DNA of 64,000 nucleotides from Bedellia somnulentella (lineage: Eukaryota > Arthropoda > Insecta > Lepidoptera > Bedelliidae). Each line of letters starts with the position of its first letter. Within the stretch, counting starts at the first letter, position 1. A program made the position numbers and the translations under genes. Under the pieces are notes generated by a model. The model was not told where the DNA came from, searched no databases, and worked only from the letters and a program-made list of their open reading frames with translations. Positions 6,550-60,018 of the stretch are shown piece after piece. The stretch covers positions 17,657,970 to 17,721,969 of the forward strand of contig OY755186.1 in assembly GCA_963576735.1 (NCBI GenBank). Reading direction: 5' to 3'.

Positions 6550-7320
6550 ACTTTACATACATACTTATATTTCAAACTAAGAAACCTCCTTTTTTTCGAG
6601 TCGGTTAAAGAACTTAAACCTTCTCCTGAATGTAATAACATAAACTGATAACTCTTTGTCTAATAATAACTAAGAACCTTCAAACTTACATACATACTTA
6701 TAGGTGAAACTCAGAAACTCTTTTTTTGAGACGGTTAGATCACTAAAACCTTGTCCTGAAAGTAACAAGTACTTTTCTGAAAATCGCATCTAAATAGCTT
6801 AAGCGAAACGCGAGATAATCGCCGACCAACATACATACATGCAGGTCAAACACAGAACCTCCTTTCTTTTAGAGTCGGTTAAATCACTTTACCCATCTTC
6901 TAAATGTAACGAATACTTTTCTGAAAACCGCATCTAAATAGCTTAAGCCAAACGTGAGATAATCGCGGACCAACAGACATACATACAGGTCAAACACATA
7001 ACCTCTTTTCTTTTTTGGTCGGTTAAGGCACTTAAACCTTCTCCTTAATGTAACGAATACTTTTCTGAAAACCGCATCCAAATAGCTTAAGCCAAACGTG
7101 AGATAATCGCGGACCAACAGACATACATACAGGTCAAACACAGAACCTCCTTTCTTTTTTTGGTCGGTTAAGACACTAAAACCTTCTCCTAAATGTAACA
7201 AATACTGTTCTGAAAACCGCATTCAAATAGCTTAAGCCAAACTCGAGATAATTGCGGACAATTGTACATACATACATACATTCATACAAACAATGGAACT
7301 GAGAACCTCCTTTTTAGCCA
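6550..7320. repeat. Degenerate tandem array, unit about 140-150 bp, five to six units
   Basis: Repeated blocks run CATACATACAGGTCAAACAC, GAACCTCC, a T-rich run, GTCGGTTAA, AACCTTCTCC, GAATACTTTTCTGAAAACCG and AGCTTAAGCCAAAC. The three central units (about 6830-7250) are most alike, the outer ones more worn. A minus-strand ORF across 6884-7222 is only the repeat read in phase and is not taken as a gene. Confidence 0.65.
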
Positions 7321-12721: not shown

Positions 12722-13052
12722 AAAAAGATTAACCGTCGTCGAGCACATCATATCTTTTTGATTTGCTTCTGCATATTTTAATTAAAATTAAGTAGTTAAA
12801 AGCCGAATTCTAACTATTAACTTATATTAAGTGGTTAAATAAGTGTTAAACTTCGTTGTGATAAAAGTTTTTCTGTATAATTACAACGTATTAGTGCAAT
12901 ATTAGTGCAAATACAAAGCTGTTCAGTTAAACGCGTAAGCGACGCACTCTGCACGGCGCTTAAGACTTTTTTCACATAACGGGAGCTCGCGCGCAGTATT
13001 GTATTGTGACTTTATTCCGGTGCTTTGCTAATCGGAACAAAATAATATTAAC

Positions 13053-13868
13053 ATGTCGGGTAAGCCGGGTAAGCAGAAGTCGAAACAGAATATTGAACTA
13101 GGCGAACCATTGGTAACGCTGAGTGGGATCGATGCTATCTTTGAAGGAAAAATGGAAACATTGAAAAGTTATATTCGCTTAGTAATACAAGAAAGTGTAG
13201 GTAGCATAAAGGAGGAACTACAATCGTTACAATCTTCGTATAACTACCTATCAGCTGAGTATGATGACATGAAAAAAGAAATTATTGAGCATAATCTCCT
13301 AATAAGTGATCTCAGAAAAGAAAATTTGTCGCTGAAATCAACTGTTGGTGAGCTTACCAATAAGTTCTTGTCCATGGAGTTATTATCGCGTAGTTGTAAC
13401 GTCGAGTTTCATGGAATACCGGAGAAAAAGGACGAAAATGTGATTAAGATCGTGAAAAAAATCTACGACATAACAGGCACACCGTTAACCGACGAATCTA
13501 TCATATCCTGCCGTCGAGTGGCTAAGATAAACACGACTACCAAGCGCCCGCGCAGTATCTTATTGACGCTGCCTACCCCGCGCCATCGTGACTGTATTTT
13601 ATCATCGGTGCATAAATATAACAAATTTAACCCAAACGAAAAACTAAGCTCTCACGTCATTGGAATTTCTGGAGAGAAGAGTCAAATTTACGTTGGGGAA
13701 AATTTACCTATTCAATTAAGAAAACTGCATGCCGAAGCGAGAAAACTATCCAAAGAAAACAATTACAAGTTTGTCTGGGTCAAATACGGACAAATATATG
13801 TCAGGAAAAATGGAGATGCTAAGGAAATAAGAATAAAAAATGAAAATTCTTTAGGCCTTATAAAATAA
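13053..13868 (+). CDS. LINE ORF1 protein, 271 aa
   Basis: The product is an RNA-binding ORF1-type protein that would coat the LINE transcript. It begins MSGKPGKQKSKQ, basic. A heptad-rich segment at about residues 55-108 (QSSYNYLSAEYDDMKKEIIE) is likely a coiled coil. An RRM-like region follows (SRSCNVEFHGIPEKKDENVI, about 112-131, to SILLTLPTPRHRD). The C-terminal part (ENLPIQLRKLHAEARKLSKE) resembles the baculovirus FP25K-like domain found in many LINE ORF1 proteins. The start is the first ATG after the 5' UTR, in context AACATGTCG. Confidence 0.85.
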   Translation: MSGKPGKQKSKQNIELGEPLVTLSGIDAIFEGKMETLKSYIRLVIQESVGSIKEELQSLQSSYNYLSAEYDDMKKEIIEHNLLISDLRKENLSLKSTVGELTNKFLSMELLSRSCNVEFHGIPEKKDENVIKIVKKIYDITGTPLTDESIISCRRVAKINTTTKRPRSILLTLPTPRHRDCILSSVHKYNKFNPNEKLSSHVIGISGEKSQIYVGENLPIQLRKLHAEARKLSKENNYKFVWVKYGQIYVRKNGDAKEIRIKNENSLGLIK

Positions 13869-14049
13869 TTATATATCATTATCTTTTGCTGTTTGTTAAA
13901 ACTTATATTATTTATATATCATTTATTATATATTAGATATGTATTTAGATATACGTACAATGTAAATATATCACATATTTAAACTTACATTTATGCTACA
14001 GTTATCTATAATAGGTTTTAAAAATTAGGATTTCATTACATTCACACTT

Positions 14050-16905
14050 ATGATTACATTATTTTATCAAAACGTTAATCGAGTTAGGTCAAAAACTCAT
14101 GAGGTATATAAGGGTATTTTGGCCCAAAATTATGATATAATTTGTTTGACAGAAACTAATCTTAATAGCGGTGTCTACAGCAGTGAACTTGTCGATAATC
14201 GTTACAGTGTATTCCGAAGAGATCGCGAAACGTCATCTAGTAACAAAAGCGATGGGGGTGGTATTCTCGTAGCAGTTAAAAACTCAATTAGAGCTGAGCG
14301 TTGTAGTGACTGGGAAACAGGTGCTGAAGATCTATACATAGCTATACATTTAGGAAAAAACATAATTTATCTTTGTTTAGTATATTTGCCGCCTAAAATA
14401 TCATTAAATACAATGGACTTATTTTTCGAACGCTGTACTGATTTGTTAATGAATAATAGTTGCAAATTTATTATATTGGGTGATTTCAACATGCCTAATA
14501 TTAAATGGATCAGGAACCCTACTTGTACCGGTTTGAGTATGTCAGTTGTCAGTAGCGACAAAAAAAGTGATTTGTTAGTACAACTCTTAGCATTAGGTGA
14601 TTTACAACAATTGAACTATTTGGTAAATGACAATGAAACTACGTTGGACTTATACTTAACCAACATCGTCAAAACAGGTTTTACAACTTGTGAGCCAATT
14701 TCTAGAGAAGACCGACATCATCCACCTTTTTCCACACACATTCAGGTCACTAATGAACATAGTATTCATTGTAACAGAAGTAACAGAGTATTTAATTTCC
14801 GCAGGTGTAAACTTGAGCAATGCAAGGAATTGCTAAGTGAAATTGACTGGGTCAATGTGCTAACCGACCTCAATATTGATGAAAGTGTGGACATGTTTTA
14901 CAAAATATTAGACAATATTATTTCCGTTACAACACCTATGAAAAAAAATGATTCACATTTATATCCGGTTTGGTTCTCAGATAGTCTCAAAAAAACATTA
15001 TCCGACAAAGAGAAATATCATAAAAAGTTTAAAAGGTTCAATAATCCTCGTGATTACGATGTATATGCATTACTCAGATGCCGTGCGAAAAAAATGCTTA
15101 ACGACTGTTATCAGAGTTTCATTGAGGATGTTGAAGATTCTTTGCTTTCAGGTAATTCTAAAATGTTCTGGACTTATGTAAAAGATAAAAAATCTGCCTC
15201 AACTACAATACCACAAAGAGTGACATATGATAATATTACTTCTAGTATACCTTCTGAAATATGTGAGCTGTTTTCATCCTTTTTTGGGTCAGTGTACGAA
15301 AAACAACCAAATAATATTAGTATTACAACTGACAATACACATAGTCACAGTAATGTTTTGAATAAATTTAGAATAAACGAAAATGAGATTCTAATTCATC
15401 TTAAATCGTTAGACCCAAACAAAGGTGCAGGACCTGATAAGCTTCCGGCATATTTCATTAGATCTTGTGCGGAACAGCTAGTTCTACCCTTACATATAAT
15501 ATATAACAGATCTCTTGAATCAGGAATATTTCCAACTAAGTGGAAATCAGTATTTGTTGTCCCCATATTTAAAACAGGAGACCCAAGTAAATGTGAAAAT
15601 TATAGACCCATAAGTATTCTTTCATGTTTAGCAAAGCTCTTTGAAAAAATAATTTATAATTATATTTTTTATCATGTGCAAACTCTGATTAACCCTAGGC
15701 AGCACGGTTTCGTAAAATCCAAGTCAACTGTAACTAATTTACTGGAATATACCAAATACTTACACGACTCTTTCGATCAAAAACAACCTATCCATTGTAT
15801 TTACACAGACTTTAGAAAAGCTTTCGACAAAATAAATCATTTCATACTAATTCATAAACTACAAGACCAATTTGGAATCCACGGCAGTCTATTAAGATGG
15901 ATCACATCTTATCTAGCCTATAGGAACCAATTAATACCAATTAAAGGTTACTACTCAAAACCCCTTGAAATTCCTTCCGGAGTTCCGCAGGGAAGTCATT
16001 TAGGACCACTACTTTTCATCCTTTTCATCAACGACTTATCTAATTCTTTGCAATGTGATCACTTATTATACGCCGATGATTTAAAAGTTTATCAATCGAT
16101 TCAATCAATAACTGACTGTGAGAATCTTCAAAATGACCTTGTATCCCTGCATAACTGGTGTCAAAACAACTGCATGGTCTTAAATGTGAAAAAATGTTTT
16201 GTTATTAGATTTAATAAAGTTCAAGACCAGTGTGCAAATTACATTTATTCGATAGATGGACACTCCCTTGAAGCAGTCAGCTCTATAAGAGACTTAGGTG
16301 TTATTTTCGATAAAGAATTAACATTTCGATCCCATTATGACTATCTAATCCGGTCTTGCAACAAAATTCTTGGCTTTATCAGTCGGGTGACAAAAGGTAT
16401 GAAGAACCCCCGATCTAGTATATTTCTTTATAATAGTTTCATTAGATCAAAATTAGAATATTGTTCAGTTATTTGGAACCCATATTACAAAAATCATATT
16501 AAGTCAATAGAAAATATACAAGAAAAATTCTTAAGAATGTTATCGTTTAGGTTTAACTTAAAATATAAATGTCGCAACTATGATCTACGATTAAGCTACT
16601 TCAACGTGACGCGTCTAGAACACCGTCGTAATAATATATCTCTTATCACTTTACATAAAATTATTCATGGTTCACTAAATACTTGTCTTTTATCAAATAT
16701 GTCTCTCAATACAATATATAGATCACGTAGAAAGAAACAGGATCTATTCACATTACCTGTTAGTCCCACATTACGTTCTCATCATAACCCTATTATTCAT
16801 ATGCAGCGAATATATAACTCTGTCTCATCTCAACACGATCTTGATGTCTTTCTTAGTCTTACCCAATTCAAACATAAGCTTAAACATATCTCGTACAATA
16901 TATAA
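14050..16905 (+). CDS. LINE ORF2: endonuclease and reverse transcriptase, 951 aa
   Basis: The N-terminal third is an AP-type endonuclease: QNVN near residue 7, TETNL near 36, GDFN at 144-147. A linker follows, then the reverse transcriptase, with DKLPAYFIRSCAEQLVLPLH, KTGDPSKCENYRPISIL, YTDFRKAFD, GVPQGSHLGPLLF and the catalytic YADD at 674-677. The C-terminal part (LGVIFDKELTFRSH, SKLEYCSVIWNPYY) is the usual thumb-side region of CR1/Jockey-group elements. No RNase H domain is seen. Length is normal for the group. It would nick target DNA and copy the LINE RNA into it. Confidence 0.93.
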   Translation: MITLFYQNVNRVRSKTHEVYKGILAQNYDIICLTETNLNSGVYSSELVDNRYSVFRRDRETSSSNKSDGGGILVAVKNSIRAERCSDWETGAEDLYIAIHLGKNIIYLCLVYLPPKISLNTMDLFFERCTDLLMNNSCKFIILGDFNMPNIKWIRNPTCTGLSMSVVSSDKKSDLLVQLLALGDLQQLNYLVNDNETTLDLYLTNIVKTGFTTCEPISREDRHHPPFSTHIQVTNEHSIHCNRSNRVFNFRRCKLEQCKELLSEIDWVNVLTDLNIDESVDMFYKILDNIISVTTPMKKNDSHLYPVWFSDSLKKTLSDKEKYHKKFKRFNNPRDYDVYALLRCRAKKMLNDCYQSFIEDVEDSLLSGNSKMFWTYVKDKKSASTTIPQRVTYDNITSSIPSEICELFSSFFGSVYEKQPNNISITTDNTHSHSNVLNKFRINENEILIHLKSLDPNKGAGPDKLPAYFIRSCAEQLVLPLHIIYNRSLESGIFPTKWKSVFVVPIFKTGDPSKCENYRPISILSCLAKLFEKIIYNYIFYHVQTLINPRQHGFVKSKSTVTNLLEYTKYLHDSFDQKQPIHCIYTDFRKAFDKINHFILIHKLQDQFGIHGSLLRWITSYLAYRNQLIPIKGYYSKPLEIPSGVPQGSHLGPLLFILFINDLSNSLQCDHLLYADDLKVYQSIQSITDCENLQNDLVSLHNWCQNNCMVLNVKKCFVIRFNKVQDQCANYIYSIDGHSLEAVSSIRDLGVIFDKELTFRSHYDYLIRSCNKILGFISRVTKGMKNPRSSIFLYNSFIRSKLEYCSVIWNPYYKNHIKSIENIQEKFLRMLSFRFNLKYKCRNYDLRLSYFNVTRLEHRRNNISLITLHKIIHGSLNTCLLSNMSLNTIYRSRRKKQDLFTLPVSPTLRSHHNPIIHMQRIYNSVSSQHDLDVFLSLTQFKHKLKHISYNI

Positions 16906-19234: not shown

Positions 19235-21045
19235 CTACTCATGATCATCGGTGCCTGATTCTTCTGTTTCTTCCACAACAGTATGTTGGGGTAAGTTCCG
19301 GAAATAGAGGTGGTATTCAGTTGGTATAGTTTTGGTTTGACACATTGCCATCAAATCTTTGTATTTTTCAATTGACATTTTTAAAGGTTCCGCATATGTC
19401 AACTTCAGATATGTTTCCACAGACCTTCTTGTGTTACCACGAAGAACCAAAACATCAGATTCTGTTTGCGTAAGTTCATATTTGTAATATAGCTTATTTG
19501 GATCACTGCATGTTGCATGCACTTCTTTAATATTGCTCCAAACAATTTTCTGACCTCTATTATTTTTTTGCCAAACTTTGTTTACAATGTGATCCTTAAA
19601 GTTGTAAAAAATGTCTTTTGTCATGTTTTTAACAATGTATGGCTCGCCGTCTACCTTTGCCTATTTCGTTAATAAGCGCCACTCTTCCGGAGTGTAAATA
19701 ACTTTAGCTTTCGATGCGCCTTCAATCACAGAGTGAACACTATCACCCTCGTTCTGGGTGTGTCCTTTTTCTAAGAATCTATGTGTTATTGACACATTGA
19801 ATTTCCTTGCTGCATAAACATATAGTGAAAATACTATTCTATTTCTGTTCTGACCAGTACAATTGTCGGACCAGAACCTAAAATCTTGTACACCATCTCT
19901 GACGTTCGATTCAATGAAGTCTAATAAACAGCTGCTCACCTCATTCGCACCCCTCTTTGCTACAGTTTCATCCCACATGTAACAAGTCCCCTTTTTATTA
20001 CCAATATCAAAAACAGTAAAATTCAGGCATGACAATTTTCGTTTATAATAAAAAATACTTACATCTCCATGAGGACACGTCATAACTTTTTCAAAATCAA
20101 ATACAGCTGTAACTATCTTTCCGTTTGAGTTCCTAGCTTCTTTTTTATCGTACTTTTTTAGATTTCTGGCTACCGTTTTCCTCTCTTTGTGTTTAGCGTA
20201 CTTATCTTTCTCTTCTTCTGTGGGGTTCTTTGTGTTCTTAAAAATGTGACATTCGTCACATTGGTCCTTTTTTGGTATATGAAATCCTAAATTGAAGTTT
20301 TCGTTAACTATGTCCCTATATTGGCGTTCTTTTAATGCTTTACAGGTATATTTTGTTGGATCATACCATTCAAGATATAGTTTATGCATCTTGGCTATAC
20401 TCAAACTACCGTCTAAATACAGTTTGTTGCTGTCTTTGCGAATGTAATGTGATTCCACCGGCACGAACGATCGAACATGTTCGCATACATTTTTAATCAT
20501 ATCTTCAGTAATAACGCGGTTGTGCTTATTATGTCGACCTCGTTGATCCTTTTCTATTGAAGCACATCCATCGTACTTCTTCCATGCAGTTCGTAGGATT
20601 CGAGTCCTGACTGAGAGCGTATTAATGAACATTGTCTGACAAACGTCCACTTTCTGGTTCCTCAGACCATCTGTATCGGAAATGACAGGCAAAAAGTACT
20701 TATACGTGTATTTAAGATTGTTGGGAACATCTTGGTTGAGACATCTCTTTTTTTTTAACTTTTCGGTAAATTTAATAATGAAGTCCCATTGCTTTTCTCT
20801 GTTTCCTATTTTCCAGAAGTTAGAAAAGCAGTCTACTCTTTGTTGATGAAAAAACCTTTCGGAAAATTTGAAGCGACATTTGCAGGGATTGCCTAGAGTT
20901 TTCTCGTCCTTCATTTCCCCACGTTTAGTTACATAACTTTGTCCTAAGTTTTTCAAACACTTACACTTGACTTCAGACCATTCCTGAGTACCCCTGGGCC
21001 GTTTCCTTGAAGACTTAACTGAGCTATTAGATTCCGGTGTATACC
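19235..21045 (-). pseudogene. DDE-like transposase with one in-frame stop
   Basis: One frame runs from just after a TAG near 21051 to 19235. It is interrupted only by a TAG at 19661-19663; the frame before and after it is the same, with 12 codons between the stop and the ATG at 19624. Numbering from 20956: a cysteine-rich N-terminal segment (KTLGNPCKCRFKF), CDEC at 233-236, a likely catalytic Asp in VFDFEKV (287), WDETVAKRGANEV, a second Asp in SDNCTGQNRN (364) and FLEKGHTQNEGDS. This layout matches a protein family of arthropod elements I recall as DUF7869. There is no ATG before GEMKDEK, so the true start may lie upstream or in a separate exon. Confidence 0.7.
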
Positions 21046-21584
21046 TACTGTTATATCTAGCCTACCTCATGTACTTATTATATTAATCCTGTACTCCATT
21101 CCATGGTAAAAGTTCTTTTTATTTTAGTAATAAAAATAAAAGTTCTAATATAATACTATGTTTGTTATAGTAAAATTGACCCTTGCTTTACATAATAATA
21201 ATATATTTACTAAAAAATATTTAAAATTTATGTCCTTTTTTGGGAGTTCAAATACGGTATAATGTCTTATATGATTTTGTTCCCAAATAAAACGTCCGAT
21301 TTGCTCTTACGACGGTTAAAACACAGGTACGAATCCTGGAAAAAACGTCCCATGTTCGTATACTACTACAAGGTATTGCAAACATTCCGCAGTAAAACGT
21401 CGTATGTACATTTATGAGGCTCGATTTTTTGATAGACTTATTGATCGATTAACTAACGTATTTAACGTGTCAATAACAGAAACAGAAAACATCTGCGAGT
21501 AAAGAAATTATTTAGTCTTTTTCGATGTTCCAATGAACAACGTCTTATATGAACATCGTTTACCGTCCGGTAAAACCGTTCTCC

Positions 21585-30020: not shown

Positions 30021-31750
30021 AAATAATTAAAGATTAAAGATTAAAGATTATTTATTCAGAAAAAAGACAAATGAATAAGACTTAAAATAAATACGACATG
30101 AAAAGTTTACAAAAGAAAAATATGGTCGTTTTCACACGCTGATGCTGTACTAGGTCGAACCCGTATTACAGTCACCAGAGTCTTCCAATGTTTACAAGTA
30201 AAAGTGATATTAAAGTCTTAACAATGATAAATGTAAACAAAACTAGTCAGTGCTTTAGATAAATTGGGAAACATATTATATTAAAATAATGCAAGATAAA
30301 TATAATTAGTGCGATTAATAACTGGTTTAGAAACAAACGTAATAAGAGAAATAAAAGATAATATAAATTAGAAATATATAATGTACATATATATATATTA
30401 TATATACATATAATAGTAAAAGTAATATGTAAATAAATATACTTTGAGAATATGTGTATATGTAGTCGTATTATTTAATGTGCAATATAAAAAAAAAAAT
30501 AAAAAAAATACTTAATTTGATATATATAGTATGATGAAAAATCCTGAACCTTAATATTACTACAAATGAGAATTGTAAAAAAATAATAATAAAAATAGTC
30601 AATGTTACTTCAGTTGAGAACTAATTATTTTAGATAAGTTAGCAGTTCTTCCGTTGAAATGTAATCAGTATTGCGGAGAAATTTGCTAACTGTTAGTTTG
30701 CATTGATGAGGAGAAAGGTGAAAAATGTTGAGTTTATGATTAATTTTATTATATAAATGTGGACCCAAAAAATTTAAAAACCTTTGAGCAAAAGAAGTTC
30801 TGCATAATTTTGAAGAATATACTCGATGGATATTACGTCTAAAAATTTCTTCATTACACTGGGTATTTTGGACATTAGACAATTTATGTATTTTAATTAC
30901 ACTTAATAAAATATATAATTTGCGAACTGATAACACGTCAGCTATTTTGAATAAGTTGGTCGTAGGGGTACGAAAGGGCAAATTATAGCTCACCTTGAGA
31001 ATTGCTCTTTGAGATCTTTCGAGTTTTAGCATGTAAGATTTAGAAGCACCACCCCAAACTCTAATACAATAAGACAATAGTGATTGAGTAAGCGCGTAGT
31101 AGATCGTTTTTAGTAGTTTCAGGTCTACTAAAGATCTTAAGTGTCGAAAAAGAGCCATCAATTTTAGGATTTTAGCCGAAAGTGTTGAGATATGTTTCTC
31201 AAATGTAAGGTGCTGGTCGATGATAATACCAAGGTATTTAATATTATCAACTCTGTCAATGCAAAAGGATGAGCAAGAACATGGAAAAACAGAAGAGATA
31301 TTGAAAATTTCACAATTTTCTAAATGGACTAACAGTTTATAAGCATCAGGGGATGGTTGGGTCGTTTTATTAATAGTGAAACATATATACTTAGTTTTTT
31401 GGATATTGAGAGCGAGCTGATTATTTATTAACCATCTATTTACATTATCAAGACCTTGTTGAGCAAAATGAAACGTTTTATTCCAAGATTTATCAGAAAA
31501 TAATAAGGCAGTGTCATCCGCAAAAGTTATCATTTTACCATTGATCAACTTAAGATTGCACAGCTCATTAATATAAACTAAAAAAAGCGTAGGACCCAAG
31601 ACACTTCCTTGTGGAACACCATATGATATTGGCTTAGCTGTACCCGAAAACTCACCTATCCTTACACTCTGACATCTATCACCAAGGTAACTAATAAAAA
31701 GTTTAAGTTGAGTATCACGTTGAGTATTACCTAAATATGATACTTGTCAC
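30021..31750 (-). pseudogene. 5'-truncated LINE: reverse-transcriptase end and 3' UTR
   Basis: Minus-strand coding is open from about 31750 (YGVPQGSVLGP at 31590-31625) to a stop at 30625. It includes FADDTALLF, KYLGIIIDQHLTFEKH and LTQSLLSYCIRVWGG, so it covers the RT palm, thumb and C-terminal region of a CR1/Jockey-group protein. The endonuclease and fingers are missing. The 3' UTR is about 580 bases and ends in a short TTTAATC repeat (30021-30048). Within the part present no frameshift is obvious. It is a different family from the LINE at 12722. Confidence 0.82.
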
Positions 31751-42100: not shown

Positions 42101-45100
42101 GGGTCTAAGGTGAACTTTGGGATCCCGTTTATGGTAGCAAATGTAGGGGAAGCGAGATCGGCAGGAGACGTCCAACAGCCTCGTGTCTTGAGTGAGGACG
42201 ACGCAGGACTCGTCGTCGCCCTTGTTGTCGAAGTTCATGTTGTCCCTCGTCCAGTAGTGCAGCTTATTCAACGGTTGGCCTGCGTGAAATGAAAAGAAAA
42301 TTTGTTGGTAAATACATTCACTATGTACTTAATTTAATGGGTTTCACCATGGTTTCACCTCTCTTACTTATTGACATGATTACTAAAGAAACTAATGACG
42401 TGAGTACGAGGGGCATGCCAAAAGAAGTTAGATACTCTTTTCTCATTTAATTGACACTGGCAAGCTATACACCATGTCATAGGTTGGTTTTTTATTGACA
42501 TATTTTAATATGTAACACACTTCTTTCATTTAGTTTTAATTTGAATGAGCATCATTTTTCCGAGAATCTGGCGGGAATTCACTTGCAACAATAGAGCTCA
42601 GTCGACGTTATTTTCGCGCTATGATTTATTGTGACTTTAAAAAAGGTTTAAAGCCTCAAGAATGTTTTGAACTTTTGGCTTCTACTTTGGGTGAGTCTGC
42701 TTGTTCTCGAGCAACAGTATTCAATTGGTTTGCTAAATTTAAAAGAGGACGGGGATGTCTCGAAGATGATGCGAAGACAGGACGGCAGCCAACCGCGATC
42801 ACGCAAGAAAATGTTCGTGCAGTCGAAAACCTTATTCGCAAAAACCGACGAATTACATATGTAGAGCTAGAGCGAGAACTAGGAATTGGATCAGCAGCAA
42901 TGCAAACCATAATTCACGACCACCTTTTTCTCCGTAAACGTTGTTCGAGATGGGTGCCGCACAAACTTACCGATGAGCAGAAAGACCGTCGGGTGGATTG
43001 GTGCCTATTCATGATAGATAAATTCAACGGACGCGAGAAAAAAACGTATATGATATACTGACTGGTGAAGAAACATGGCTATATAACTATGATCCGGAAC
43101 CAAAGCGACAGTCGACTGTATGGTGCTTTGAAGACGAGCCAACTCCAACGAAATGTCGCCGTGCACGAAACACACAGACACAAATGGTCGCCTCGTTATT
43201 CTGCAAAACTGGTCATATTGCTACTGTTGTGCTAGAGAATGAAAGAACGGTAAACTCCGAATGTTATGTGACAGTTTAAGCTCCAACAGTAATATCAGCT
43301 TGGTGTGACAAGCGATCGAAGTCAGGAATCCGGCACCTTCTCTGGCACCACGACAATACGGCGCCGCACACGTCTGCCAGAACACTAGACTTTTTCAACT
43401 CGAAAAATGTGTCAATTTTCTCTCATCCGCCATATTCCCCTGAACTAGCACCTTATGATTTTTACTTGTTTCAAAAAATCAAAAAAAAACTAAAGAGGAA
43501 GAGTTTTGAAAGCAAAGAAGATGCAGAGGTATCTAAAGAAGAGTGGTCACAGGTATTTTCCAATTGGTTCAGACGTATGGAAAAGTGTATACGTGCTCAG
43601 GGTGAATACTTTGAATAGATCGATACTTGTAATAAAAAATAAATTTTATAATTTTTGAGTATCTAGTTTCTTTTGGCATGACCCTCGTATACCTATATAT
43701 AAATCTTGCATCTTATAAATCAATGAGTGCCATCTGGATGTACCAGAAAATGTATGGTTCTACGAGAAGTCAAAACTAGGCCGATGCGGTTAGCTGTTGA
43801 AGTAGGTGCTGCTACACCGAAACATCAAATATTTATGAACGATGAAACTAGATGGCACGCAGTGTTATGTAAAAGATTCGACAAAGTTATCAATTCAAAG
43901 CAGCTATGGTGAAGTCTTGTTATAGTTTGTAACTTAGCTCTAATCAGGAAGTCTCAGTTTGATTTGCAAAATAAAAATCAAAATTTTCTAATGTTAATCC
44001 AAAGCTATCCAGATTATTACGAATGAAACTGTTTATGTTTTTACATACAGTTAAAACTGAAATCTTTTTTTTTTTGAGGCTAGCGAAAATAGGCGTAGAA
44101 TTTACTTCTACAATTATGAAAGATACAATGCTAACTTACCTTCCAAGGTAAAGAAGTCGCCCTTACTAAACGTAGCGTGAATGCCGACTAGTATGCTTGA
44201 ATGCAAGTTTTTTTCGCTTCTGATTTTATCTATCGTGTCAAGTTTACTTTCATTGTATGGTATATACAATCTTGAACCTGTTAACAAAAATAATATTTCA
44301 ATATGGTTGTAGAGAAGATGACTTAAAGGTCTCCCCCATTTATATATATTAAACGGATTCCAATTTACATACATACATACTTACATATGCTCAGGGCCGT
44401 TAATCCTAAAAAGGGGTTGCCAGAGCTTCAGAACTAGAAACTTTTCGGCTACATTTGAAAGTTTATAGGGACAAGATGGTTGAAATAAAGTATCATTGGT
44501 GATGGGTTCCCAATCGCATCGCCCAAAAACCACTTAAAAAAGCCTCGTATCGTTTTCTTTTACGACACCCTTAGATAGATAAAGGTAGTGACATTCTTAG
44601 CCGGCACTTAAATTTATAAATCTCATATAGCATGTACACATTTTATTCACGGTTGCAACCGTGATAGCCCAGTGGGTAGAACACTCGGTTATCGTGCAAA
44701 CGACTAGTGTTCAAATCCTGGGTCGGGCCTACACCAATTTGTCTTTTTTTAAATACATATGTGTGGTTAATTTATCATGGTTGTTAACGGTGAGGGAAAA
44801 CATCGTGAGGAAACCCACATGGCTGAGTTGTACTTAGTCATGTGACAGTGTATTCGTACAAAACGGCAATAGGCCTGCCCCCTATCACGTGAGTACACTG
44901 TCCATGCAAAACGTGGGTACTCTGAACACCAGGTGACAAAGTCACGTGATGTTCAGAAGTATTAGTACCTCTGCCAACCCCTTCGGGGATATTCGGCGTG
45001 AACGTTTATGTTATTATGTTATGTTACATTTAATTATCGCCAAATTCTCCTGGGTCATTAGGATTCCGCAATATAGGCATTTGTAGATGTAACGTTTTAA

Positions 45101-52231: not shown

Positions 52232-52670
52232 CACAAACAAACAACAGCACAGATAAAAAAGTATCTTTAATCATTTGTAATGTCTCAACTTTTACTATGA
52301 TAGCTATATCGTGCTCGTGCTCAATAATATAGTGATAATAATAAGTAATATCGTAATAGATTTAAAACATTATCTTTGAATTTACATTGAAATGATTATC
52401 ACTTAACCTTCTTGACTGAAAAATATCTAAAATGCCTTTGTGTGAAATTTCATTCAGTGGTAATTTCATAAAATCCATTTGTAATATATCCTGAAAATGA
52501 AAAACATTATCCATTCGTTTATGCTTTTATGTGCAATGAAACTATATTTTAAAGAACGGTGTGTTTGTGTTACTCTAAATAACAACAATATAGATAGTTA
52601 GGCATAGTAAGTTTTAAGTAGTCGATCCGAAAATGAGGTATTAGTGTTTACTTCTAATTTTTAATCAAAT
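52232..52670. other. Intergenic, nothing recognised
   Basis: No gene or repeat is supported. Confidence 0.4.
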
Positions 52671-52733
52671 GCCGTGTAGTGTCGGCTTAGTATACCACTA
52701 GCCCGTTTCTACCGATGGGTGAACGTAAGTGGC
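52671..52733 (+). mobile_element. SINE family A copy, left part, split by the foldback element
   Basis: GCCGTGTAGTGTCGGCTTAG to GAACGTAAGTGGC; it continues at 59471. Confidence 0.88.
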
Positions 52734-52949
52734 ACCTGTGTGAAGTTGGCAGCCAAAACTGGCAGCCATTATAATACGACCAAATTAAGAAGTAAAATAC
52801 TTTTTGGTTCCATTTACCAGAATAACATGTAAATCCAAAGTTTTCAGTAGTTATTATGTTATATGTATCGATACTCATCCGGACATACATCCATATTCAT
52901 CTGTAGACAGTGCCAAAGCCTGCAGATAAAATGAAATTAAGCATGGGAG
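52734..52949 (+). repeat. Left terminal arm of the foldback element
   Basis: 216 bp of non-tandem sequence, ending at GCATGGGAGCCGCTCC where the 183-bp array begins. Confidence 0.88.
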
Positions 52950-55900
52950 CCGCTCCATAAAAATCCTTACCTCTCCTAAACCAAGACCCGTAACACTTTG
53001 TGGTTACATTCATTGTAAAGCCTATTACATAAGCTATCAAATGATGGTATAACAGTATCCCGCTTTGCCGTCAGAGGAAGGAATATTCGACGGAGAAGAT
53101 GACAGCGTATACAAGTATAAGTAATGTAACGGCCGCTCCAGAAAAATCCTCACCTCTCCTAAACCAAGACCCGTAACACTTTGTAGTTACATTCATTGTA
53201 AAGCTTATTACAAAGGCTATCAAATAATGGTATAACAATATCCCGTTTTGCCGTCAGAGTAAGGAATATTCGACGGAGAAGATGACAGCGTATACAAGTA
53301 TAAGAAATGTAACGGCCGCTCCAGAAAAATCGTCACCTCTCCTAAACCAAGACCCGTAACACTTTGTGGTTACATTCATCGTAAAGCTTATTACATAAGC
53401 TATCAAATGATGGTATAACAGTATCCCGCTTTGCCGTCAGAGTAAGGAATATTCGACGGAGAAGATGACAGCGTATACAATTGTAAGAAATAAAACGGCC
53501 GCTCCAGAAAAATCGTCAACTCTCCTAAACCAAGACCCGTAACACTTTATGGTTACATTCATTGTAAAGCTTATTACATAAGCTATCAAATAATGGTATA
53601 ACAGTATCCCGCTTTGCCGTCAGAGTAAAGAATATTTCACGAAGAAAATGACAGCGTATACAACTGTAAGAAATATGGCGGCCGCTCCAGAAAAATCCTC
53701 ACCTCTCCTAAACAATGACCCGTAACACTTTGTAGTTACATTCATTGTTAAGCCTATTACAAAAGCTATCAAATGATGGTATAACAGTATCCCGTTTTGC
53801 CGTCAGAGTAAGGAATATTCGACGGAGAAGATGACAGCGTATACAACTGTAAGAAATATGGCGGCCGCTCCAGAAAAATCCTCACTTCTCCTAAACCAAG
53901 ACCCGTAACACTTTGTGATTACATTCATTATTAAGCTTATTACATAAGCTATCAAATAATAGTATAACGGTATCCCGTTTTGCCGTCAGAGTAAGGAATA
54001 TTCGACGGGGAAGATGACAGCGTATACAACTGTAAGAAATATGGCGGCCGCTCCAGAAAAATCCTCACCTCTCCTAAACCAAGACCCGTAACACTTTGTG
54101 ATTACATTCATTGTAAAGCTTATTACATAAGCTATCAAATAATAGTATAACGGTATCCCGCTTTGCCGTCAGAGTAAGGAATATTCGACGGGGAAGATGA
54201 CAGCGTATACAACTGTAAGAAATATGGCGGCCGCTCCAGAAAAATCCTCACCTCTCCTAAACCAAGACCCGTAACACTTTGTGATTACATTCATTGTAAA
54301 GCTTATTACATAAGCTATCAAATGATGGTATAACAGTATCCCGCTTTGCCGTCAGAGTAAAGAAAATTCGACGGAGAAGATGACAGCGTATACAACTGTA
54401 AGAAATACGGCGGCCGCTCCAGAAAAATCCTCACTTCTCCGAAACCAAGACCCGTAACACTTTGTGGTTACATTCACTGTTAAGTTTATTACATAAGCTA
54501 TCAAATAATGGTATAACAGTATCCCGCTTTGCCGTCAGAGTAAGGAATATTCGACGGAGAAGATGACAGCGTATACAATTATAAGAAATAAAACGGCCGC
54601 TCCAGAAAAATCGTCACCTCTCCTAAACCAAGTCCCGTAACACTTTGTGGTTACATTCATTGTAAAGCTTATTACATAAGCTATCAAATGATGGTATAAC
54701 AGTATCCCGCTTTGCCGTCAGAGTAAAGAATATTTGACGGAGAAAATGACAGCGTATACAATTGTAAGAAATATGGCGGCCGCTCCAGAAAAATCCTCAC
54801 CTCTCCTAAACCATGACCCGTAACAATTTGTAGTTACATTCATTGTCAAGCTTATTACATAGGCTATCAAATAATGGTATAACAGTATCCCGCTTTGCCG
54901 TCGAAGTAAGGAATATTCGACGGAGAAGATGACAGCGTATACAATTATAAGAAATAAAACGGCTACTCCAGAAAAATCGTCACCTCTCCTAAACCAAGAC
55001 CCGTAACACTTTGTGGTTACATTCATCGTAAAGCTTATTACATAAACTATCAAATGATGGTATAACAGTATCCCGCTTTGCCGTCAGAGTAAGGAATATT
55101 CGACGGAGAAGATGACAGCGTATACAATTGTAAGAAATAAAACGGCCGCTCCAGAAAAATCGTCAACTCTCCTAAACCAAGACCCGTAACACTTTGTGAT
55201 TACATTCATTGTAAAGCTTATTACATAAACTATCAAATAATGGTATAACAGTATCCCGCTTTGCCGTCAGAGTAAAGAATATTTCACGAAGAAAATGACA
55301 GCGCATACAACTGTAAGAAATATGGCGGCCGCTCCAGAAAAATCCTCACCTCTCCTAAACCATGACCCGTAACACTTTGTAGTTACATTCATTATTAAGT
55401 TTATTACATAAGCTATCAAATAATGGTATAACGGTATCCCGCTTTGCCGTCAGAGTAAGGAATATTCGACGGGGAAGATGACAGTGTATACAAGTATAAG
55501 AAATTTAGCGGCCGCTCCAGAAAAATCCTCACTTCTCCGAAACCAAGACCCGTAACACTTTGTGGTTACATTCACTGTTAAGTATATTACATAAGCTATC
55601 AAATAATGGTATAACAGTATCCCGCTTTGCCGTCAGAGTAAGGAATATTCGACGGAGAAGATGACAGCGTATACAACTGTAAGAAATACGGCGGCCGCTC
55701 CAGAAAAATCCTCACTTCTCCTAAACCAAGACCCGTAACACTTTGTCGTTACATTCATTGTTAAGTTTATTACATAAGCTATCAAATAATGGTATAACAG
55801 TATCCCGTTTTGCCGTCAAAGTAAGGAATATTCGACGGAGAAGATGACAGCGTGTACAACTGTAAGAAATATGGCGGCCGCTCCAGAAAAATCCTCACCT

Positions 55901-55978
55901 CTCCTAAACCAAGACCCGTAACACTTTGTGATTACATTCATTGTAAAGCTTATTACATAAGCTATCAAATGATGGTAT
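52950..55978 (+). repeat. Left array of 183-bp units, about 16.5 units
   Basis: GGCCGCTCCAG recurs at 53131, 53314, 53497, 53680, 53863, 54046, 54229, 54412, 54595, 54778 and onward to 55876, always 183 bases apart. The unit passes ACCAAGACCCGTAACAC, GTATCCCGCTTTGCCGTCAG and ATGACAGCGTATACAA. Many units carry GCGGCCGC, an 8-base NotI site. Confidence 0.95.
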
Positions 55979-58900
55979 ATATATAGTGAGGATTTTTCTG
56001 GAGCGGCCGCTAAATTTCTTATACTTGTATACACTGTCATCTTCCCCGTCAAATATTCCTTACNNNNNNNNNNNNNNNNNNNNNNNNNNNNNNNNNNNNN
56101 NNNNNNNNNNNNNNNNNNNNNNNNNNNNNNNNNNNNNNNNNNNNNNNNNNNNNNNNNNNNNNNNNNNNNNNNNNNNNNNNNNNNNNNNNNNNNNNNNNNN
56201 NNNNNNNNNNNNNNNNNNNNNNNNNNNNNNNNNNNNNNNNNNNNNNNNNNNNNNNNNNNNNNNTACAATGAATGTAATCACAAAGTGTTACGGGTCTTGG
56301 TTTAGGAGAAGTGAGGATTTTTCTGGAGCCGTTTTATTTCTTATAATTGTATACGCTGTCATCTTCTCCGTCGAATATTCCTTACTCTGACGGCAAAGCG
56401 GGATACTGTTGTACCATCATTTGATAGCTTATGTAATAAGCTTTACAATCAATGTAACCACAAAGTGTTACGGGTCTTGGTTTAGGAGAGGTAACGATTT
56501 TTCTGGAGCAGCCGCCATGTTTCTTACAGTTGTATACGCTGTCATCTTCTCCGTCGAATATTCCTTACTCTGACGGCAAAGCGGGATACTGTTATACCAT
56601 CATTTGATAGCTTATGTAATAGGCTTTACAATGAATGTAACCACAAAGTGTTACGGGTCTTGGTTTAGGAGAGGTGAGGATTTTTCTGGAGCGGCCGCCA
56701 TATTTCTTACAGTTGTATACGCTGTCATTTTCTTCGTCAAATATTCTTTACTCTGACGGCAAAGCGGGATACTGTTATACCATTATTTAATAGCTTATGT
56801 AATAGGCTTTACAATGAATGTAATCACAAAGTGTTACGGGTCTTGGTTTAGGAGAGGTGAGGATTTTTCTGGAGCGGCCGCCATATTTCTTACAGTTGTA
56901 TACGCTGTCATTTTCTTCGTCAAATATTCTTTACTCTGACGGCAAAGCGGGATACTGTTATACCATTATTTGATAGCTTATGTAATAGGCTTTACAATGA
57001 ATGTAATCACAAAGTGTTACGGGTCTTGGTTTAGGAGAGGTGAGGATTTTTCTGGAGCGGCCGCCATATTTCTTACAGTTGTATACGCTGTCATTTTCTT
57101 CGTCAAATATTCTTTACTCTGACGGCAAAACGGGATACTGTTATACCATTATTTGATAGCTTATGTAATAAGCTTTATAATGAATGTAACCACAAAGTGT
57201 TACGGGTCTTGGTTTAGGAGAGGTGACGATTTTTCTGGAGCGGCCGTTTTATTTCTTATAATTGTATACGCTGTCATCTTCTCCGTCGAATATTCCTTAC
57301 TCTGACGGCAAAGCGGGATACTGTTATACCATCATTTGATAGCTAATGTAGTAACCTTCACAATGAATGTAACCACAAAGTGTTACGGGTCTTGGTTTAG
57401 GAGAAGTGAGGATTTTTCTGGAGCGGCCGCTATATTTCTTACAGTTGTATACGCTGTCATCTTCTCCGTCGAATATTCCTTACTCTGACGGCAAAGCGGG
57501 ATACTGTTATACCATCATTTGATAGCTAATGTAGTAACCTTCACAATGAATGTAACCACAAAGTGTTACGGGTCTTGGTTTAGGAGAAGTGAGGATTTTT
57601 CTGGAGCGGCCGCTATATTTCTTACAGTTGTATACGCTGTCATCTTCTCCGTCGAATATTCCTTACTCTGACGGCAAAGCGGGATACTGTTATACCATCA
57701 TTTGATAGCTTATGTAATAAGCTTTACAATGAATGTAACCACAAAGTGTTACGGGTCTTGGTTTAGGAGAAGTGTCGATTTTTCTGGAGCAGCCGCCATG
57801 TTTCTTACAATTGTATACGCTGTCATCTTCTCCGTCGAATATTCCTTACTCTGACGGCAAAGCGGGATACTGTTATACCATCATTTGATAGCTTATGTAA
57901 TAGGCTTTACAATGAATGTAACCACAAAGTGTTACGGGTCTTGGTTTAGGAGAGGTGAGGATTTTTCTGGAGCGGCCGCCATGTTTCTTACAGTTGTATA
58001 CGCTGTCATTTTCTTCGTCAAATATTCTTTACTCTGACGGCAAAGCGGGATACTGTTATACCATTATTTGATAGCTTATGTAATAGGCTTTACAATGAAT
58101 GTAATCACAAAGTGTTACGGGTCTTGGTTTAGGAGAGGTGAGGATTTTTCTGGAGCGGCCGCCATATTTCTTACAGTTGTATACGCTGTCATTTTCTTCG
58201 TCAAATATTCTTTACTCTGACGGCAAAGCGGGATACTGTTATACCATTATTTGATAGCTTATGTAATAGGCTTTACAATGAATGTAATCACAAAGTGTTA
58301 CGGGTCTTGGTTTAGGAGAGGTGAGGATTTTTCTGGAGCGGCCGCCATATTTCTTACAGTTGTATACGCTGTCATCTTGTCCGTCGAATATTCCTTACTC
58401 TGACGGCAAAGCGGGATACTGTTATACCATCATTTGATAGCTAATGTAGTAACCTTCACAATGAATGTAACCACAAAGTGTTGCGGGTCTTGGTTTAGGA
58501 GAAGTGAGGATTTTTCTGGAGCGGCCGCTATATTTCTTACAGTTGTATACGCTGTCATCTTCTCCGTCGAATATTCCTTACTCTGACGGCAAAGCGGGAT
58601 ACTGTTATGCCATCATTTGATAGCTTATGTAATAAGCTTTACAATGAATGTAACCACAAAGTGTTACGGGTCTTGGTTTAGGAGAGGTGAGGATTTTTCT
58701 GGAGCGGCCGCTATATTTCTTACAGTTGTATACGCTGTCATTTTCTTCGTCAAATATTCTTTACTCTGACGGCAAAGCGGGATACTGTTATACCATTATT
58801 TGATAGCTTATGTAATAGGCTTTACAATGAATGTAATCACAAAGTGTTACGGGTCTTGGTTTAGGAGAGGTGAGGATTTTTCTGGAGCGGCCGCCATATT

Positions 58901-59254
58901 TCTTACAGTTGTATACGCTGTCATCTTGTCCGTCGAATATTCCTTACTCTGACGGCAAAGCGGGATACTGTTATACCATCATTTGATAGCTTATGTAGTA
59001 ACCTTCACAATGAATGTAACCACAAAGTGTTGCGGGTCTTGGTTTAGGAGAAGTGAGGATTTTTCTGGAGCGGCCGCTATATTTCTTACAGTTGTATACG
59101 CTGTCATCTTCTCCGTCGAATATTCCTTACTCTGACGGCAAAGCGGGATACTGTTATGCCATCATTTGATAGCTTATGTAATAAGCTTTACAATGAATGT
59201 AACCACAAAGTGTTACGGGTCTTGGTTTAGGAGAGGTGAGGATTTTTCTGGAGC
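55979..59254 (-). repeat. Right array of 183-bp units, inverted, about 18 units
   Basis: The same unit on the opposite strand (CTGGAGCGGCC, GTTACGGGTCTTGGTTTAGG). It is interrupted by a run of N at 56064-56263. Near the outer end a three-unit block is repeated (see findings). Confidence 0.92.
56064..56263. other. Assembly gap, 200 N
   Basis: Exactly 200 N near the palindrome centre; probably a placeholder of unknown true length. Confidence 0.98.
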
Positions 59255-59470
59255 GGCTCCCATGCTTAATTTCATTTTATCGGCAGGCTTTGGCACTGTC
59301 TACAGATGAATATGGATGTATGTCCAGATGAGTATCGATACATAACATTATAACTAGTGAAAACTTTGGATTTACATGTTATTCTGGTAAATGGAACCAA
59401 AAATTATTTTACTTCTTAATTTGGTCGTATTATAATGGCTGCCAGTTTTGGCTGCCAACTTCACACAGGT
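59255..59470 (-). repeat. Right terminal arm of the foldback element
   Basis: Reverse complement of 52734-52949 with a few substitutions and a 2-base indel near 59340. Confidence 0.88.
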
Positions 59471-59662
59471 GTAAGTGGCGACTAACAGTATTGGGGCTTT
59501 TAAGGGATTTTTGGGCGATGCGGTTGGAGACCCATCACCAACAACCTTTACTTTTACCATCTTTTCCCCACTCATATTTCCAAAGGTGGCTGAGGAATTT
59601 CTAATTCCTTAGCTCTGGCTACCCCTTCTAGGGATTTATAGCCGTGAGTATATGTTATGTTA
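59471..59662 (+). mobile_element. SINE family A copy, right part
   Basis: Starts with the duplicated GTAAGTGGC and runs through GCCGTGAGTATATG to the tail. Confidence 0.88.
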
Positions 59663-60018
59663 TGTTCTAATTTTTATTTACCATACTTTTATTTACTTAG
59701 AAAGGCGGCTTAAATAATTAAGAATGCTTACCGATATTTTTTCGATAATCGTTCCTTATTATTTATTCGGTTTTTGGGGTTTGCAAGTATGAAAATAATA
59801 AAACCTTTATTCTATCATCATGTCTGCCTGGTCTATATCGTAGCAGTTTATTTCTATTAAGATTAAGACTTTGTAATTGAATTTTTTATTGGTTATGTTC
59901 GCAAGGTGTAGACCGATTTAGCTATTCTTCATCCTTCATAAATTTACTACGGATATGATATCTGAAAAAGAAAACATATTTAGGCCAATACTTAGTTAAA
60001 AACATACGTAATTTAAGG
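59663..60018. other. Intergenic, nothing recognised
   Basis: Ends with GTAATTTAAGG (60008-60018), the left target duplication of the next LINE. Confidence 0.45.

What the first reader, a model, noticed from the sequence alone, without database searches (positions are those of the whole stretch)
52725..59479. A 6.7-kb foldback transposon built from inverted satellite arrays, with a 9-bp target duplication
Seen: matching 216-bp ends in opposite orientation, inner arrays of one 183-bp unit that flip orientation at about 55980, and GTAAGTGGC on both sides splitting a SINE whose two halves join perfectly. So this is a mobile element and not an ordinary satellite. Known: Drosophila FB elements have long internally repetitive inverted arms and 9-bp duplications; Galileo (P superfamily) has 7-bp duplications; MULEs make 8-11 bp ones. 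Inference: a lepidopteran FB-like, non-autonomous family, possibly mobilised by a MULE-type transposase.
Basis: partly seen in the sequence, partly recalled or inferred. Interest (0 to 1): 0.88.

Follow-up and report, generated by a model that had tools for sequence, protein, structure and literature searches.

The report
Satellite-armed foldback transposon family
A jumping DNA element built almost wholly of one 183-base repeat, laid out in two mirror-image arrays, is real and has many young relatives in this probably lepidopteran genome, so a transposon is spreading satellite DNA here; the kind of element is known from flies and beetles.

Summary
The element is 52734-59470, 6737 bases as assembled. 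GTAAGTGGC lies on both sides and splits one SINE; both copies carry a T where 24 of 24 aligned SINE copies have A, so they descend from one target. In the host genome the 21-base terminus occurs 136 times (control 0; 100 listed). Of 33 facing end pairs, 31 show a perfect 9-bp duplication. Six complete copies without N are arm, array, inverted array, arm; three checked have no ATG frame over 93 aa. Sizes run 2.0-30 kb. A-type arms differ by 0.25% between copies, while array order is lost from about the third unit inward. The form matches published Rehavkus-1_TC and Tetris. No coding partner was found: none of 98 MULE-domain matches lies within 93 kb of the 100 listed termini. Verdict: a young, non-autonomous foldback family, a new member of a known kind, most likely moved by a MULE or Rehavkus-type transposase; that last step is inferred.

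The parts
52725..52733 (+). left target duplication GTAAGTGGC
   Evidence: private T against A in 24 of 24 aligned SINE copies
52734..52948 (+). left terminal arm, type A, 215 bp, begins ACCTGTGTG
   Evidence: same end in the genome
52949..55979 (+). left array of the 183-bp unit, 16.6 units
55980..56063 (.). flip junction and 79-bp inverted stub before the gap
   Evidence: stub is 98.7% like the inverse of 55455-55533
56064..56263 (.). assembly gap, 200 N
56264..59257 (-). right array of the same unit, inverted, 16.4 units
59258..59470 (-). right terminal arm, type B, 213 bp
59471..59479 (+). right target duplication GTAAGTGGC
52670..52724 (+). left part of the SINE that was hit
59480..59680 (+). 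right part of the same SINE

Best explanation
This is one copy of a young, non-autonomous cut-and-paste DNA transposon family of foldback type. SHOWN: a near-constant terminal arm of about 215 bp at each end, inverted; between the arms two inverted arrays of a 183-bp unit that meet at a short junction; insertion with a 9-bp target duplication; no long reading frame in the gap-free copies checked. INFERRED: a transposase encoded elsewhere, of the MULE superfamily and plausibly Rehavkus-like, recognises the terminal arm and moves the whole unit. The arrays change faster than the arms: blocks of units are duplicated within one arm, and the central junction appears in both orientations, most simply by unequal exchange, slippage or template switching in palindromic tandem DNA during replication or gap repair.
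For: Both duplications share the target's private base. 31 of 33 end pairs have an exact 9-bp duplication, with different target sequences. 136 termini against 0 for the reversed pattern. Six complete copies without N show the same plan (L015, L018, L025, L063, L064, L066). Longest ATG frames 52, 73 and 93 aa in L015, L018, L025. A arms: mean 0.55 differences in 215 over 11 copies. Arrays: position match only next to the arm; 405 of 582 units have their nearest relative in the same array. Published Rehavkus: 9-bp duplication, TIR 26-400 bp, minisatellite (PMC6446971, passages).
Against: No coding element with these ends was found; none of 98 PF10551 matches lies within 93 kb of 100 of the 136 termini. 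Two of 33 pairs lack the duplication, C8:19650199-19668987 and C19:5340192-5343332. 34 of the 100 listed termini have no facing partner by my rule. In L013 and L016 the array runs into an N gap and neither a second arm nor a second duplication copy was found in the fetched stretch. The assembly mishandles these arrays, so unit order is not fully trustworthy.
Confidence: 0.82

Rival explanations
1. The foldback family is real, but its mobiliser is a transposase outside the MULE/Rehavkus group that also makes 9-bp staggered cuts.
For: No PF10551 match within 93 kb of the 100 listed termini. PMC4079207 (section 16 part 1) notes that foldback forms may arise in different lineages.
Against: 9-bp duplication, long terminal arms and tandem repeats beside them are the published Rehavkus features (PMC6446971 and PMC10218199, passages). 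Only 100 of 136 termini could be compared, and partners with a shorter shared end were not searched.
Confidence: 0.2
2. The scrambled array order between copies is mainly an assembly artefact; the true arrays are much alike.
For: 200-N gaps inside arrays in the window, L011, L012, L013, L016 and the C2 copy; L012 repeats its junction across a gap; the C2 copy holds a misplaced 42-kb piece between two gaps.
Against: Three contigs with the same flank (L021-L023) agree on 4.0 units. Gap-free copies also differ strongly in unit number. Units next to the arms agree between copies while inner ones do not.
Confidence: 0.15
3. An ordinary dispersed satellite that merely happens to be flanked by a short repeat.
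For: Tandem 183-bp arrays over more than 9 kb in one direction exist (L014, L017, L020, L027).
Against: 31 of 33 perfect 9-bp duplications abutting one fixed terminus, and a split SINE with a shared private base.
Confidence: 0.01

Closest known systems
Rehavkus-1_TC of Tribolium castaneum and the Rehavkus group (PMC10218199 and PMC6446971, passages only)
   Same: 9-bp duplication; terminal repeats in the 26-400 bp range; tandem units (164 bp there, 183 bp here) in the inverted termini; kb size.
   Different: Rehavkus encodes a transposase with a PHD finger; the copies examined here encode nothing long. Terminal sequences could not be compared.
Tetris of Drosophila virilis (PMC4079207; outline, section 10, section 16 part 1)
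   Same: Non-autonomous foldback; outer flanking domain, then tandem units of about 220 bp, inverted at the other end; duplications of 8-10 bp; units also found in satellite-like arrays.
   Different: Flanking domain up to 866 bp and a variable middle domain there; about 215 bp and no middle domain beyond a short junction here. Tetris arrays in structurally complete copies are short; arrays here reach tens of units. Terminal sequences not compared.
Drosophila FB elements
   Same: Long inverted arms that are internally repetitive, 9-bp duplication.
   Different: Unit length and sequence not compared here.
Galileo, P superfamily (recalled; cited in passing in PMC4079207 section 16)
   Same: Foldback form with tandem repeats in long terminal repeats.

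Membership tests
Foldback-type DNA transposon | long inverted terminal repeats that are internally tandem | tested here: met
   six complete copies without N
Foldback-type DNA transposon | target duplication at many insertions | tested here: met
   31 of 33 pairs, 9 bp
Rehavkus | 9-bp target duplication | tested here: met
   31 of 33 pairs
Rehavkus | terminal repeat of 26-400 bp with tandem repeats beside it | tested here: met
   213-215 bp arm plus 183-bp array; family feature from PMC6446971 passages
Rehavkus | transposase with PHD finger encoded by a member with the same ends | not tested
   no coding copy found and no Rehavkus protein was at hand as a query
Rehavkus | terminal sequence like known Rehavkus | not testable with these tools
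   Repbase sequences are not held
MULE superfamily (PF10551) | 8-11 bp target duplication | tested here: met
   9 bp; range from PMC6446971 passages
MULE superfamily (PF10551) | MULE transposase gene inside an element with these ends | tested here: inconclusive
   98 matches in the genome, none within 93 kb of 100 of 136 termini; 36 termini not listed
   exact match length is 9 in all 31 pairs with a duplication
Tetris | sequence relation of the terminal domain to Tetris | not tested
   Tetris letters were not at hand

The most novel reading that the evidence does not exclude
Array remodelling is coupled to transposition itself: each jump, or repair of the gap it leaves, rewrites the satellite body and can flip or re-form the centre while the ends are copied faithfully, so one transposon lineage lays down a fresh satellite array at each landing and seeds dispersed satellite DNA.
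Probability: 0.25. Interest if true: 0.75.

Novelty: new member of a known kind. Interest (0 to 1): 0.55.

Why it matters
It is a young case of a transposon whose body is satellite DNA. Variants in the terminal arms mark subfamilies, so array change can be measured against point mutation: about 0.25% in A-type arms against loss of unit order in the arrays. That makes the question of how foldback elements and satellites give rise to one another testable in one genome. It also shows how such arrays break assemblies.

Tried and rejected
Chance satellite: rejected. Hidden coding centre: not seen in the three gap-free copies checked. L021-L023 (arm plus 4.0 units, then other DNA with an AATAAA close by) looked like a possible coding copy; no stop-to-stop frame above 110 aa, so I take it for a truncated copy; its other end was not seen. 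The C2 pair of 74.7 kb with a perfect duplication looked like transposed cargo; its interior of about 42 kb lies between two 200-N gaps, so I read it as a scaffolding insert. DUF7869 ORF as partner: no PHD finger in 7 relatives scanned, no terminus in the window outside the two ends. Search with a peptide of the array: none of 178 candidates at E 0.001. Terminus and unit patterns in viral contigs: 0; unit pattern in the prokaryote genome set: 0, which says little for an animal element. Shared blocks by BLAST at 98.5% judged unreliable in tandem DNA and replaced. Terminus-variant search (ends that diverge after 14 bases): not completed.

Full report
What was checked. The element spans 52734-59470. 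GTAAGTGGC abuts both ends and occurs nowhere else in the window. The terminal arms, 215 and 213 bp, are inverted and differ by five substitutions and a 2-bp indel. The inner arrays hold 16 full units of 183 bp each, with consensus units 99.5% alike. The flip is at about 55980-55985.

The target. The element splits a SINE that is very common in the window: 39 BLAST rows, the two halves of this copy included. I aligned the 24 others that cover the site broadly. All 24 have A at the sixth base of the 9-mer, both duplications have T. A private base of the target on both sides is what a duplication gives and a shared SINE motif does not.

The family. After seven busy replies the genome search answered: the window lies in a 549-Mb assembly of 486 contigs. 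Of 151 candidate arm copies 40 were scored; 29 begin exactly at base 52734 of the query, ten reach 1-7 bases further out, as chance matches may, and one is the window itself. In 27 ends read in full and 20 more the first 17 bases are the same. The 21-base terminus with at most one mismatch occurs 136 times, 70 and 66 per strand, against 0 and 0 for the reversed pattern; 100 places were listed. I paired each forward terminus with the next one on the contig if that was reverse and within 75 kb: 33 pairs, 34 listed termini left over. Perfect 9-bp duplications: 6 of 6, 3 of 3, 22 of 24, in all 31 of 33. The exceptions are C8:19650199-19668987, with 7 mismatches, and C19:5340192-5343332, whose flanks are reverse complements of each other with N inside, perhaps a folded assembly. 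In L013 and L016 the array ends at an N gap and no second arm was seen in the stretch. Leaving out the C2 pair, sizes as assembled run from 2030 to 30060 bp, median 8969, over 32 pairs; some include N or nested DNA.

Structure across copies. L015, L018, L025 and L063, L064, L066 are complete and free of N. Each is arm, array, inverted array, inverted arm, with at most 33 unmatched bases at the centre. Unit numbers differ between arms: 5.2 and 21.6 in L015, 23.6 and 6.2 in L018, 19.1 and 18.9 in L025. L010, L012 and L019 hold stretches of 481, 192 and 3381 bp inside an array that do not match the unit, probably nested insertions. Longest ATG frames are 52, 73 and 93 aa in L015, L018 and L025.

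Subfamilies and age. In the window, L011, L012, L015, L018 and the C22 copy one end is type A, the other type B. In L025 and the C8 12.4-kb copy both ends share another type; in the C17 copy both ends are a third type apart from one base. Eleven A arms differ by 0.55 of 215 bases on average, 28 of 55 pairs being identical; five B arms by 0.80 of 213. Two A-like arms with a 1-bp deletion, L019 and L020, were left out of that count. The A/B subfamily is thus young, and its two ends have not been evened out.

Array dynamics. Between nine A copies the unit next to the arm is 98.8% identical at the same position against 94.4% off position, unit 2 is 97.3% against 94.1%, and from unit 3 on the same-position value lies within about 1.1 points of background. 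The five B ends and five ends of the L025 type show the same trend less clearly. In the window the two arms show no match by position (P 0.38). Over 582 units from 22 arrays at 16 places, the nearest relative lies in the same array for 405, in another copy for 162 and in the other arm of the same copy for 15; chance for the same array is 5.8%, ties were counted as same array, and both arms were available at only six places, with 211 units. Blocks of up to 19 consecutive units recur within one array. So arrays grow mainly by block duplication within an arm. The junction AGTATC/TTGG occurs in L010, L011, L012, L015 and L018. Read from arm A it runs one way in L011, L015 and L018 and the other way in L010 and L012, so the centre has inverted at least once or the arm tags were swapped. 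L024 and L025 share a second junction; L026, L028 and the window have others. That the window's junction is an altered form of the first is my inference.

Cautions. The assembly mishandles these arrays. The C2 pair seemed to enclose about 42 kb of ordinary DNA, but N gaps bound it on both sides. L012 repeats its junction across a gap. For the middle probes L128 and L134 I could not tell nested DNA from a coding centre. Three contigs with the same insertion agree on 4.0 units, which speaks for some trust in array order.

Transposase. The genome holds 98 matches to PF10551 (138 candidates scored), most without stops inside. None lies within 93 kb of the 100 listed termini. A partner sharing fewer terminal bases, one among the 36 unlisted termini, or a Rehavkus transposase that this model does not reach remains possible. 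The host is probably lepidopteran: of 120 listed relatives of a window ORF most of the named ones are moths or butterflies, the top one a beetle.

Known relatives. PMC6446971 (passages) gives Rehavkus a 9-bp duplication, terminal repeats of 26-400 bp and a minisatellite. [quoted passage not shown] PMC4079207 (outline with abstract, section 10, section 16 part 1) describes Tetris, a non-autonomous foldback whose 220-bp units became satellite. The kind is therefore known. I saw no paper on this element or on a lepidopteran foldback in searches, in a library that lacks most subscription journals; of the papers they listed I looked only at passages of PMC6446971, PMC13359780, PMC10218199, PMC9659126 and PMC9026859. 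Searches served other points.

Noticed in passing
window 19235-21061 (-): Two adjoining frames (466 and 141 aa); the larger matches PF25273 (DUF7869) and has 313 relatives at E 0.001, mostly lepidopteran where named; no held paper contains the word DUF7869. It may be an undescribed transposase (inference from motifs seen by eye).
   Followed up: partly
window 6688-7276: Another tandem array, 144-bp unit, 4.1 copies.
   Followed up: no
whole window: One SINE type gives 39 BLAST rows in 64 kb, an unusually dense accumulation.
   Followed up: no
window 13032-16905 (+), 30625-31746 (-), 42549-43061 (+): Reverse-transcriptase frames of non-LTR type and a Mos1-like transposase fragment.
   Followed up: no
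L143, L144 (C2:3395801-3398799 and 3440001-3442999): Likely scaffolding error: about 42 kb of ordinary DNA placed between two N gaps inside one copy of the element.
   Followed up: partly
L128 (C8:7026000-7026400) and L134 (C19:5190200-5190600): Middle probes of two end pairs with perfect duplications that do not match the unit; L128 has a 133-aa open frame that looks like a retroelement by eye.
   Followed up: no
L021, L022, L023: Three contigs carry the same insertion flank, arm plus 4.0 units, then non-unit DNA; possible haplotype or segmental copies.
   Followed up: partly
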